A DNA stretch of 64,000 nt from positions 1,488,001 through 1,552,000 of the forward strand of contig NZ_CP055930.1 of assembly GCF_013927005.1 (NCBI RefSeq), given 5' to 3'. The notes beneath the pieces are model-generated. The model was not told where the DNA came from. It saw only the letters and a list, made by a program, of their open reading frames with translations, and did not search any database. The translations under genes and the position numbers were made by a program. Shown piece after piece: positions 51,787 to 58,346 of this stretch; position 1 is the first letter of the stretch, and the number at the start of each line of letters is the position of its first letter. This DNA comes from Enterobacter sp. RHBSTW-00175. GTDB taxonomy: Bacteria > Pseudomonadota > Gammaproteobacteria > Enterobacterales > Enterobacteriaceae.

Positions 51787-51959
51787 ATGAAATTTCCTTT
51801 AATACTTACTGTACTTGCAAGCATGGCTGCAAGTTGTTTTTCCTCCGCCTATGCAACCGGGATGACACCTGAATTCTCTGTATTATTGGTTAATGCAAAT
51901 GATAATGGTGCCAGTATTAATGTTAAAAATACTGATGATAAAGCTGAATTGCTTTATAC
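51787..51959 (+). pseudogene. Fimbrial chaperone, N-terminal fragment cut by IS1
   Basis: The first 57 codons of a periplasmic pilus chaperone like E. coli YhcA: a signal peptide (MKFPLILTVLASMAAS... to about AYA), then GMTPEFSVLLVNANDN and VKNTDDKAELLYT, the first strands of the chaperone's N-terminal domain. An IS1 begins at 51960 and the frame stops after six IS-encoded residues. The C-terminal part lies 5.3 kb away on the opposite strand (57302-57569), and about 75-90 central codons are missing from both. The fragment cannot be a working chaperone. It still has the likely operon promoter upstream (51638-51786). Confidence 0.9.
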
Positions 51960-51974
51960 GGTAATGACTCCAAC

Positions 51975-52478
51975 TTATTGATAGTGTTTTATGTTCAGAT
52001 AATGCCCGATGACTTTGTCATGCAGCTCCACCGATTTTGAGAACGACAGCGACTTCCGTCCCAGCCGTGCCAGGTGCTGCCTCAGATTCAGGTTATGCCG
52101 CTCAATTCGCTGCGTATATCGCTTGCTGATTACGTGCAGCTTTCCCTTCAGGCGGGATTCATACAGCGGCCAGCCATCCGTCATCCATATCACCACGTCA
52201 AAGGGTGACAGCAGGCTCATAAGACGCCCCAGCGTCGCCATAGTGCGTTCACCGAATACGTGCGCAACAACCGTCTTCCGGAGCCTGTCATACGCGTAAA
52301 ACAGCCAGCGCTGGCGCGATTTAGCCCCGACGTATCCCCACTGTTCGTCCATTTCCGCGCAGACGATGACGTCACTGCCCGGCTGTATGCGCGAGGTTAC
52401 CGACTGCGGCCTGAGTTTTTTAAATGGCGGAAAATCGTGTTGAGGCCAACGCCCATAATGCGGGCGGTTGCCCGGCAT
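51975..52478 (-). CDS. insB: InsB of IS1 (left copy)
   Basis: A 167-residue frame that supplies the catalytic part of IS1 transposase, with the DDE-type residues in VIVCAEMDEQWGY, WMTDGWPLY and ELHDKVIG. It is normally produced as an InsAB' fusion by a -1 frameshift at AAAAAAC. It looks identical to the right copy and intact. Confidence 0.95.
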   Translation of the reverse strand: MPGNRPHYGRWPQHDFPPFKKLRPQSVTSRIQPGSDVIVCAEMDEQWGYVGAKSRQRWLFYAYDRLRKTVVAHVFGERTMATLGRLMSLLSPFDVVIWMTDGWPLYESRLKGKLHVISKRYTQRIERHNLNLRQHLARLGRKSLSFSKSVELHDKVIGHYLNIKHYQ

Positions 52479-52672
52479 CCAACGCCATTCATGGCCATAT
52501 CAATGATTTTCTGGTGCGTACCGGGTTGAGAAGCGGTGTAAGTGAACTGCAGTTGCCATGTTTTACGGCAGTGAGAGCAGAGATAGCGCTGATGTCCGGC
52601 GGTGCTTTTGCCGTTACGCACCACCCCGTCAGTAGCTGAACAGGAGGGACAGCTGATAGAAACAGAAGCCAC
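52397..52672 (-). CDS. insA: InsA of IS1 (left copy)
   Basis: A 91-residue DNA-binding protein with a Cys4-type zinc finger (CPSCSATDG and CSHCRKTW) and a helix-turn-helix (GVGCRATARIMGVG). Alone it represses IS1 transcription. It overlaps insB, allowing the frameshifted transposase. Confidence 0.95.
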   Translation of the reverse strand: MASVSISCPSCSATDGVVRNGKSTAGHQRYLCSHCRKTWQLQFTYTASQPGTHQKIIDMAMNGVGCRATARIMGVGLNTIFRHLKNSGRSR

Positions 52673-52727
52673 TGGAGCACCTCAAAAACACCATCATACA
52701 CTAAATCAGTAAGTTGGCAGCATCACC

Positions 52728-52736
52728 CGTTATGTT
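52728..52736 (+). repeat. Inverted 9-base target duplication, inner copy
   Basis: CGTTATGTT directly inside the left IS1 is the reverse complement of AACATAACG directly outside the right IS1 (58338-58346). Inverted target duplications at the two junctions are the signature of an intramolecular replicative IS1 event that inverts the DNA between. Confidence 0.9.
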
Positions 52737-53434
52737 TACAGATAATCCACGTTAAACGTTACGTTACCGTCGATGGTTTGCTGATCGGTAATATCTCGCA
52801 GGGCACTTGAAATATAAGCCGATGTCATAAACCTAAATTCTGCAGTGGCGCTAGCCTCTGGCTCCAGCGAACCTGAAGCGGCCATGGCGACATAGGCTCT
52901 GTCAGTGCTCCCCGCCTTGTTATTTAATGGGGTTATTGCCACGCCTGCGGGAGCTTTTGTCCAACTGGCGCCTGATGCTGCACTCCGAGAGAGCATGTCC
53001 TGATAATCCGTGCCGCCGAATTTAGTGGTGATATTTTGCAGTGAGATGTAATAGCCGCCAATATTCACATTATCGCTGGTTTTTCCCAGCCCTAACACGC
53101 GGCCTTCAAATGCAGCCCCTTGGGATGTCTCTGCGGCAGGAATAGCGGAGTCAGCCCGGTTATCGGTAAGTGACACCTGATATTTCAGCGGGCTAGTGCA
53201 GGTGATCCGCAAATAGTTAGTTTTCCCTAACGCCTCCAGACTGCCTGTTGGGGGAAGACTGTCCGCGCTGATATTACCTAAATCAATATTGGCCGTGGGC
53301 AATACAGCAGCGGTACAGGTCCCGGTAGAAACCTGGCCTTTTACCGCCAGCGTGGCGGAAGGGTTGGCCATTACCAGGCCGGAGAAAGCCATTGCGCCCG
53401 CCAGCAGCGAGTATTTAAAAATTCCATTTTTCAT
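52736..53434 (-). CDS. Fimbrial subunit B1 (DUF1120-like)
   Basis: A 232-residue secreted pilin-like protein: signal peptide MKNGIFKYSLLAGAMAFSGL.. cut about after VMA, mature start NPSATLAVKGQVSTGTC, two cysteines (about 40 and 79), C-terminal ..DGNVTFNVDYL. Head and tail match B2 and B3 but the centre (about residues 42-200) is much diverged. It follows A1 by 11 bases. It lies on the inverted segment; the IS1 joins directly after its stop codon. The family resembles GltF/YhcF of E. coli by recollection. A role as structural or surface-exposed subunit is inferred. Confidence 0.8.
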   Translation of the reverse strand: MKNGIFKYSLLAGAMAFSGLVMANPSATLAVKGQVSTGTCTAAVLPTANIDLGNISADSLPPTGSLEALGKTNYLRITCTSPLKYQVSLTDNRADSAIPAAETSQGAAFEGRVLGLGKTSDNVNIGGYYISLQNITTKFGGTDYQDMLSRSAASGASWTKAPAGVAITPLNNKAGSTDRAYVAMAASGSLEPEASATAEFRFMTSAYISSALRDITDQQTIDGNVTFNVDYL

Positions 53435-53445
53435 TGTTTGCTTCC

Positions 53446-57239: not shown

Positions 57240-57301
57240 ATAAGTTTTTGATATTGTTAGTTTATTGTCTGAATGAGATCATTCCTCGTTAATAATTCTA
57301 A

Positions 57302-57569
57302 TTATTTATTAACTGCAGCTGTATAATCATTAACGGCGATACCAAAGCGCGAGGCTGGGAATATTTTTATTTGACTGTCAGTTACTGGTTTTTCCATTTT
57401 AATCGTTTCTGTTTCACCCGGCAGGATCCATGTTTTACTCAACATTCCTTTATTACCGGAGGGTAAGGTTTTCACTTGCTGTGACAGACGAACCACATAA
57501 GGGCTTGGATTACTGACAACGAGGGTATTTCCGGTCGTTTTCCAGACCAGTTTATCCCAGGGAGTAGAG
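57302..57569 (-). pseudogene. Fimbrial chaperone, C-terminal fragment
   Basis: The last 90 or so codons of the same chaperone as the fragment at 51787: STPWDKLVWKTTGNTLVVSN, then NPSPYVVRLS and the conserved LPGETETI, ending YTAAVNK. The open frame extends into the IS1 end for three residues (MAA), which is not a real start. A gap of about 75-90 codons separates it from the N-terminal fragment. It faces the opposite way because the IS1-bounded segment is inverted. The usher gene follows after about 60 bases. Confidence 0.9.
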
Positions 57570-57624
57570 GGTGATGCTGCCAACTTACTGATTTAGTGTA
57601 TGATGGTGTTTTTGAGGTGCTCCA

Positions 57625-57900
57625 GTGGCTTCTGTTTCTATCAGCTGTCCCTCCTGTTCAGCTACTGACGGGGTGGTGCGTAACGGCAAAAGCACCGCCG
57701 GACATCAGCGCTATCTCTGCTCTCACTGCCGTAAAACATGGCAACTGCAGTTCACTTACACCGCTTCTCAACCCGGTACGCACCAGAAAATCATTGATAT
57801 GGCCATGAATGGCGTTGGATGCCGGGCAACCGCCCGCATTATGGGCGTTGGCCTCAACACGATTTTCCGCCATTTAAAAAACTCAGGCCGCAGTCGGTAA
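57625..57900 (+). CDS. insA: InsA of IS1 (right copy)
   Basis: A 91-residue protein identical as translated to the left copy, with the Cys4 zinc finger and helix-turn-helix. Its end holds the slippery AAAAAAC (57876-57882) for the -1 frameshift into insB. Confidence 0.95.
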   Translation: MASVSISCPSCSATDGVVRNGKSTAGHQRYLCSHCRKTWQLQFTYTASQPGTHQKIIDMAMNGVGCRATARIMGVGLNTIFRHLKNSGRSR

Positions 57901-58322
57901 CCTCGCGCATACAGCCGGGCAGTGACGTCATCGTCTGCGCGGAAATGGACGAACAGTGGGGATACGTCGGGGCTAAATCGCGCCAGCGCTGGCTGTTTTA
58001 CGCGTATGACAGGCTCCGGAAGACGGTTGTTGCGCACGTATTCGGTGAACGCACTATGGCGACGCTGGGGCGTCTTATGAGCCTGCTGTCACCCTTTGAC
58101 GTGGTGATATGGATGACGGATGGCTGGCCGCTGTATGAATCCCGCCTGAAGGGAAAGCTGCACGTAATCAGCAAGCGATATACGCAGCGAATTGAGCGGC
58201 ATAACCTGAATCTGAGGCAGCACCTGGCACGGCTGGGACGGAAGTCGCTGTCGTTCTCAAAATCGGTGGAGCTGCATGACAAAGTCATCGGGCATTATCT
58301 GAACATAAAACACTATCAATAA
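57819..58322 (+). CDS. insB: InsB of IS1 (right copy)
   Basis: A 167-residue transposase frame identical as translated to the left copy and intact, so both elements may still be active. It ends 15 bases before the terminal repeat end. Confidence 0.95.
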   Translation: MPGNRPHYGRWPQHDFPPFKKLRPQSVTSRIQPGSDVIVCAEMDEQWGYVGAKSRQRWLFYAYDRLRKTVVAHVFGERTMATLGRLMSLLSPFDVVIWMTDGWPLYESRLKGKLHVISKRYTQRIERHNLNLRQHLARLGRKSLSFSKSVELHDKVIGHYLNIKHYQ

Positions 58323-58337
58323 GTTGGAGTCATTACC

Positions 58338-58346
58338 AACATAACG
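58338..58346 (+). repeat. Inverted 9-base target duplication, outer copy
   Basis: AACATAACG just outside the right IS1 is the reverse complement of the 9 bases inside the left IS1 (52728-52736). Rejoining them places the insertion exactly after the B1 stop codon. Confidence 0.9.

What the first reader, a model, noticed from the sequence alone, without database searches (positions are those of the whole stretch)
51787..58346. IS1-driven inversion split a fimbrial operon and its chaperone
Seen: the chaperone's N-terminal 57 codons are on + (51787-51959) and its C-terminal 90 or so codons on - (57302-57569). Two complete 768-base IS1 copies in opposite orientation lie against the fragments. Flanks: GCTTTATAC-[IS1]-CGTTATGTT ... 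GGAGTAGAG-[IS1]-AACATAACG. CGTTATGTT is the exact reverse complement of AACATAACG; the other two flanks do not match. Known: intramolecular replicative IS1 transposition gives an inversion with the 9-base target repeat in inverted form. Flipping 52728-57569 restores chaperone-usher-minor subunit-A1-B1-A2-B2-A3-B3 on one strand, with the second IS1 target exactly after the B1 stop.
Basis: partly seen in the sequence, partly recalled or inferred. Interest (0 to 1): 0.85.

Follow-up and report, generated by a model that had tools for sequence, protein, structure and literature searches.

The report
IS1 inversion in a fimbrial operon
A jumping gene (IS1) is tied to the loss of a piece of one gene in a hair-making (fimbrial) operon and to the flipping of 4.8 kb of that operon, almost certainly disabling it; this is a clean example of a well-known kind of damage.

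Summary
Two IS1 copies, identical over 768 bases and opposite in orientation, lie at 51960-52727 (-) and 57570-58337 (+). They bracket 52728-57569, and CGTTATGTT/AACATAACG is an exact inverted 9-mer. Of 23 IS1 copies in this genome only this pair shares such a flank. The usher, minor subunit and first subunit pair are inverted relative to the first part of the chaperone and to the remaining subunits.

The interpretation needs two corrections. First, the chaperone is not merely split: the closest intact relatives (232 aa) match the fragments as residues 1-57 and 145-232, so about 258 bp of its middle are gone. Turning the segment back would restore gene order, not the gene. Second, the 9-mer does not prove replicative inversion: a second ordinary insertion after B1, then recombination between the inverted copies, leaves the same four flanks. 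Replicative inversion needs fewer steps, and I prefer it at about 0.6.

Elsewhere in this IS1-rich genome, one IS1 sits at a likely 6-kb deletion and another joins an exact 4.9-kb tandem duplication that includes curli genes. This is a known kind of event, of modest interest.

The parts
51787..51959 (+). N-terminal fragment of a PapD-type fimbrial chaperone gene (57 codons + 2 bases)
   Evidence: 93% identical to residues 1-57 of intact P0143; 53% over 51 aa to L111 chaperone; no Pfam match on its own
51951..51959 (+). GCTTTATAC, outer left flank of IS1 copy A; no matching repeat
51960..52727 (-). IS1 copy A, 768 bp
   Evidence: identical to copy B; DDE_Tnp_IS1 E 2.3e-78
52728..52736 (+). CGTTATGTT, inverted copy of the 9-bp target repeat
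   Evidence: exact reverse complement of 58338-58346
52728..57569 (.). inverted segment (4842 bp) between the two IS1 copies
   Evidence: gene order against 7 homologous operons
52736..53434 (-). subunit B1, DUF1120, 232 aa
53446..54120 (-). subunit A1, DUF1120, 224 aa
54186..54755 (-). minor subunit, 189 aa, no Pfam match; 22-31% like proteins at the same place in homologous operons
54765..57239 (-). outer membrane usher, 824 aa, full length
   Evidence: Usher, PapC_N, PapC_C; 95% to an Enterobacter mori usher over its whole length
57302..57569 (-). C-terminal fragment of the chaperone gene (88 codons, stop, 1 base)
   Evidence: PapD_C (in an ORF that begins in IS1); 87.5% identical to residues 145-232 of P0143
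57561..57569 (+). GGAGTAGAG, inner flank of IS1 copy B; no matching repeat
57570..58337 (+). IS1 copy B, 768 bp
58338..58346 (+). AACATAACG, second copy of the 9-bp target repeat
58455..59141 (+). subunit A2, DUF1120
59153..59860 (+). subunit B2, DUF1120
59888..60562 (+). subunit A3; 92% to A1 (A3 itself was not scanned against Pfam)
60574..61266 (+). subunit B3, DUF1120

Best explanation
A chaperone-usher fimbrial operon between gltD and sspB once read on one strand as chaperone-usher-minor subunit-A1-B1-A2-B2-A3-B3 (inferred from gene order and homologues). An IS1 inserted in the chaperone gene, and an IS1-adjacent deletion removed about 258 bp of it (the loss is shown by comparison with relatives, the mechanism is inferred). 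The IS1 then attacked the B1-A2 gap on the same chromosome by replicative transposition in the inverting mode. This copied the IS1, duplicated the 9-bp target in inverted form and turned 52728-57569 round (structure shown, mechanism inferred). The deletion and the inversion could have come in either order. The result is almost certainly a dead fimbrial operon (inferred, not tested): no complete chaperone, usher turned away from whatever promoter served the chaperone, and A2-B3 separated from the rest.
For: Identical inverted IS1 copies with an exact inverted 9-mer, the only such pair among 23 copies. Fragments equal residues 1-57 and 145-232 of three close intact chaperones; of 1265 homologues found, the 120 listed were compared and 120 of 120 match both fragments with 80-87 residues between. 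A search of the whole genome with a homologous chaperone gave 8 matches: the two fragments and six other places, none a close copy of the missing part. Colinear order in 7 of 7 homologous operons. The signature is that of Fig. 6 of the IS6-family review: inversion, two inverted IS copies, target repeat in inverted orientation, one original and one target flank at each IS (PMC7986276, passages). A review lists IS1/Tn9 among elements doing such rearrangements, the deletion leaving the element without direct repeats (PMC9330008, passages). Another IS1 here (L002) lies at a junction where a relative has 6.1 kb and this genome 0.5 kb.
Against: The flanks cannot tell this from two insertions plus recombination. 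No intermediate strain was found. The old target repeat that would mark the first insertion is gone, so the IS1 origin of the deletion is inferred. Near IS1 neighbours are not rare here: four neighbouring pairs, this one included and one a tandem of diverged copies, lie within 10 kb, and 18 randomly placed copies give a pair within 5.6 kb in 27% of trials, so a second independent insertion is not far-fetched.
Confidence: 0.6

Rival explanations
1. Two separate IS1 insertions, one in the chaperone (with a deletion) and one after B1 with an ordinary 9-bp repeat, followed by RecA-type recombination between the inverted copies. The inversion would then be reversible.
For: Predicts the same four flanks a-IS1-b' ... 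a'-IS1-b. Identical 768-bp inverted repeats 4.84 kb apart are plausible substrates. IS1 is abundant here (23 copies). Inversions by recombination between IS copies are reported, e.g. ISCro4 in Citrobacter rodentium (PMC3072379, passages).
Against: Needs one more event than replicative inversion; no strain with the B1-A2 site in direct-repeat form was seen, but close relatives of this locus could not be read at all.
Confidence: 0.33
2. Assembly error: the segment was joined in the wrong orientation between two real IS1 copies.
For: Identical 768-bp inverted repeats are a classic trap for short reads.
Against: The chromosome is one 5.38-Mb contig of a 4-contig genome, which suggests, without proving, long reads. 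A flipped assembly of two real insertions would still leave the chaperone deletion.
Confidence: 0.05
3. A functioning switch: recombination between the IS1 copies turns the segment back and forth to control fimbriae.
For: The geometry of inverted identical repeats; usher, minor subunit and six subunit genes are open; a related chaperone gene is present elsewhere in the genome.
Against: In neither orientation is a whole chaperone present, because about 258 bp are gone.
Confidence: 0.02

Closest known systems
Intramolecular replicative transposition with inversion (IS1/Tn9, IS26, Tn3 family)
   Same: Two inverted identical IS copies bracket the inverted segment; target repeat in inverted orientation; one original and one target flank at each IS (PMC7986276 Fig. 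6 legend, passage).
   Different: The two original flanks do not match each other, and about 258 bp next to the IS are missing as well.
IS-adjacent deletion
   Same: A deletion that appears to end at the IS, which then lacks direct repeats (PMC9330008 section 5.2.1, passages).
   Different: Deletion and inversion meet at one and the same place here; their order is unknown.
Chaperone-usher fimbrial operons with DUF1120-like subunits between gltD and sspB in the genus
   Same: Chaperone-usher-minor subunit in that order on one strand in the four such loci read (L105-L108).
   Different: Best full-length usher identity 41% among the 35 other genus genomes; the four operons carry one or two subunit-like genes before the chaperone, and in three of the four one after the minor subunit, rather than three A-B pairs after it; none of the four shows a match to the IS1 transposase.
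IS102 insertions that disrupted a fimbrial operon in Citrobacter rodentium ICC168
   Same: IS expansion breaking a fimbrial operon in an enteric bacterium (PMC3072379, passages).
   Different: The passages seen describe insertions, not an inversion with a deletion.

Membership tests
IS1 element | 768 bp with IS1 transposase and near-matching inverted ends | tested here: met
   768 bp, DDE_Tnp_IS1, ends GGTGATGCTGCC.. / ..GGAGTCATTACC; that these are IS1 ends is recalled
IS1 element | 8-9 bp direct target repeats at undisturbed copies | tested here: met
   13 of 23 copies in this genome: 8 with 9 bp, 5 with 8 bp; the two copies of this pair have none; the length expected is recalled
Replicative inversion | Two identical IS copies in inverted orientation bracket the segment | tested here: met
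Replicative inversion | New target repeat present in inverted orientation, one copy at each IS | tested here: met
Replicative inversion | The old target repeat split between the two IS copies | tested here: not met
   GCTTTATAC and CTCTACTCC do not match; the deletion would explain it, which is inferred. The same failure holds for the recombination rival.
Replicative inversion | Second IS copy arose in the inversion itself, without RecA | not testable with these tools
   the same flanks arise from insertion plus recombination
Chaperone-usher fimbriae | Usher with PapC_N, Usher and PapC_C domains | tested here: met
Chaperone-usher fimbriae | Complete periplasmic chaperone | tested here: not met
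   about 87 of 232 residues missing
Chaperone-usher fimbriae | Fimbriae made on the cell surface | not testable with these tools
   needs microscopy

The most novel reading that the evidence does not exclude
A burst of IS1 in this lineage is reshaping its surface fibres by several routes at once: one fimbrial operon deleted in part and inverted, the curli genes csgBAC doubled in tandem with IS1 at the joint. This could reflect selection on adhesion rather than chance.
Probability: 0.1. Interest if true: 0.45.

Novelty: new member of a known kind. Interest (0 to 1): 0.2.

Why it matters
It is a readable record of two IS1-linked rearrangements at one place, and a warning that an inverted target repeat alone does not prove replicative inversion. 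It explains why genes that look intact (usher, subunits) probably make no fimbriae in this strain. With the duplication that includes the curli genes and the likely 6-kb deletion it makes this genome a useful natural case of IS1-linked change.

Tried and rejected
Looked for an orthologous uninterrupted locus. The genome-contig scan gave one relative, at 42% (the tool says records very near the window's own genome may be left out). In 60 other genus genomes the usher DNA gave only short matches, none longer than 225 bases. Of 392 family genomes drawn from a larger group, two others passed E 1e-220, at 51 and 52%. The closest ushers and chaperones are proteins without context (in both searches only the roughly 8000 candidates sharing most words were scored), so orientation in a near relative stays untested. 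E. coli genomes have no near match to the usher DNA.

A phase switch was rejected because no orientation gives a whole chaperone. The promoter scan found 6 sites against a shuffle mean of 8.1, and supports nothing.

In one search the C fragment was translated in the wrong frame, so its lack of matches there means nothing. It was redone as 57302-57568. My ORF rule takes ATG starts only, so the L108 usher appears there from residue 206 on; one search shows that frame open over 809 codons.

Of seven identical IS1 copies without direct repeats, two are this pair and four others were compared with eight relatives: L002 and L007 gave a reading. The right flank of L005 had no match, and the right flank of L009 matched only at 74-75% and away from the place of its left flank; these two stay unexplained. 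L001 (second contig) and the diverged copies L021-L023 were not followed up.

Full report
Observation. IS1 copy A (51960-52727, -) and copy B (57570-58337, +) are identical over 768 bases and are inverted repeats with the segment 52728-57569 between them. The genome (5.57 Mb, 4 contigs) has 23 IS1 copies; by the listed identity 19 are 100% identical to the query, one of them on the second contig. Of the 23, 13 have direct 8- or 9-bp repeats; 10 do not, among them these two. Comparing all flanks between copies, in both directions (2024 comparisons), gave one match of 8/9 or better: the inverted 9-mer of this pair. Random 9-mers from the same flanks gave any 9/9 match in 42 of 3000 trials, and on average 0.29 matches of 8/9 or better.

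Genes. On the - strand inside the segment are usher (824 aa; PapC_N, Usher, PapC_C), a 189-aa minor subunit without Pfam match, and subunits A1 and B1 (DUF1120). Outside on + are A2, B2, A3, B3 (A3 was not scanned but is 92% identical to A1). The chaperone is in two pieces, 57 codons on + next to copy A and 88 codons on - next to copy B. Of 12 loci of relatives read, 7 hold a homologous operon, and in 7 of 7 chaperone, usher and minor subunit follow each other on one strand. That supports the inversion. These operons are distant (usher 39-48%), and in five of the seven one or two subunit-like genes lie before the chaperone, so the exact ancestral order of the subunits rests on the window itself.

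The missed deletion. Aligned with seven intact chaperones, the two fragments leave a gap. The search found 1265 homologues and listed 120; all 120 of these match both fragments with 80-87 residues between. The three closest (P0143, 93% and 87.5%; P0141; P0147), all 232 aa, match as residues 1-57 and 145-232, leaving 87 residues. Allowing for the three bases of them still present, 258 bp are absent if the ancestor had that length. A search of the whole genome with the L111 chaperone found the two fragments and six other places. One of the six matches only residues 76-148, but at 30% identity and inside an open frame of 257 codons, so it looks like part of another chaperone gene and not the missing piece. 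The loss falls largely in the N-terminal half of the chaperone. That this half is needed to bind subunits is recalled.

Mechanism. Replicative transposition in the inverting mode leaves two inverted IS copies, the target repeat in inverted form, and one original and one target flank at each IS (PMC7986276, passages seen; written for the IS6 family). IS1/Tn9 are listed among elements with such deletions and inversions (PMC9330008, passages seen; the primary IS1 paper it cites was not held). The pattern fits. It fits equally well a second insertion after B1 with ordinary direct repeats, followed by recombination between the inverted IS1 copies: the flanks end up in the same four places. Replicative inversion saves one event, and I prefer it at 0.6 against 0.33. 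The non-matching flanks GCTTTATAC and CTCTACTCC are what a deletion beside the first IS1 would leave under either reading.

Context. No close orthologue of the operon was found in the searched genomes. Close proteins exist: usher 95% in an Enterobacter mori record, 86% and 74% in unnamed ones, 78% in Salmonella enterica serovar Lattenkamp. The genus is probably Enterobacter; no call names it. The place between gltD and sspB varies in the genus. Of 61 genomes, 57 have both genes placed on one contig; 14 have at most 125 bp between them and 43, this one included, have 3.2-10.7 kb. The four left out are G015 and G080 (different contigs), G063 (no gltD placed there) and G032 (no sspB match). Eight of the other 42 filled slots were read. 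NCBIfam names the cargo in two of them: a sialic-acid (nan) operon in L102 and codBA in L110. In the other six (L104-L109), ORFs with like beginnings, not scanned, suggest nan or codBA genes in five, and usher matches show fimbrial operons in four. The closest relative by gltD and sspB, G078, has nan there; this genome has no close nanA (best 29%).

Other IS1 effects. Four of the seven identical copies without direct repeats were compared with eight relatives. L002 lies where G078 has 6.1 kb and this genome 0.5 kb. L007 joins two exact copies of 4893 bp holding part of csgD, csgBAC, an ADP-ribose deacetylase gene and mdoC; G078 has one copy, and the two flanks lie in the same swapped order in 8 of 8 relatives. 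L005 and L009 gave no clear answer.

Verdict. A real, well-preserved IS1 rearrangement of a known kind, more destructive than described, with the mechanism likely but not proven.

Noticed in passing
L118:4023-8915 and 9683-14575 (G000:C1:4060000-4079000): Exact 4893-bp tandem duplication with an IS1 at the joint, covering part of csgD, csgBAC, an ADP-ribose deacetylase gene and mdoC; one copy in G078.
   Followed up: partly
window 51598-61300 and the gltD-sspB gap in 57 genus genomes: The gltD-sspB gap is a variable slot: at most 125 bp in 14 of 57, 3.2-10.7 kb in 43 of 57. In 8 other filled slots read, nan, codBA and fimbrial genes occur alone or together (only two slots named by NCBIfam).
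   Followed up: partly
window 53446-54120, 58467-59141, 59888-60562: A1, A2, A3 are 93-98% identical in DNA, while neighbours B1-B3 are only 61-64% alike; A3 differs from the other two mainly in its first 90 bases (signal peptide region), which suggests gene conversion of the rest.
   Followed up: partly
L120:9089-10366 against L121: IS1 at a junction where the relative G078 has about 6.1 kb and this genome 0.5 kb: a likely IS1-adjacent deletion.
   Followed up: partly
G000:C1:2071070-2074158: A second related chaperone-usher pair in the genome (chaperone 49% to L111's; usher 38% to the window's), no stops inside; whether it could serve these subunits is unknown.
   Followed up: no
window 51606-51628: Terminator-like stem of 9 pairs just after gltD; terminator-like sites in 51590-58500 number 14 against a shuffle mean of 7.7.
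   Followed up: no
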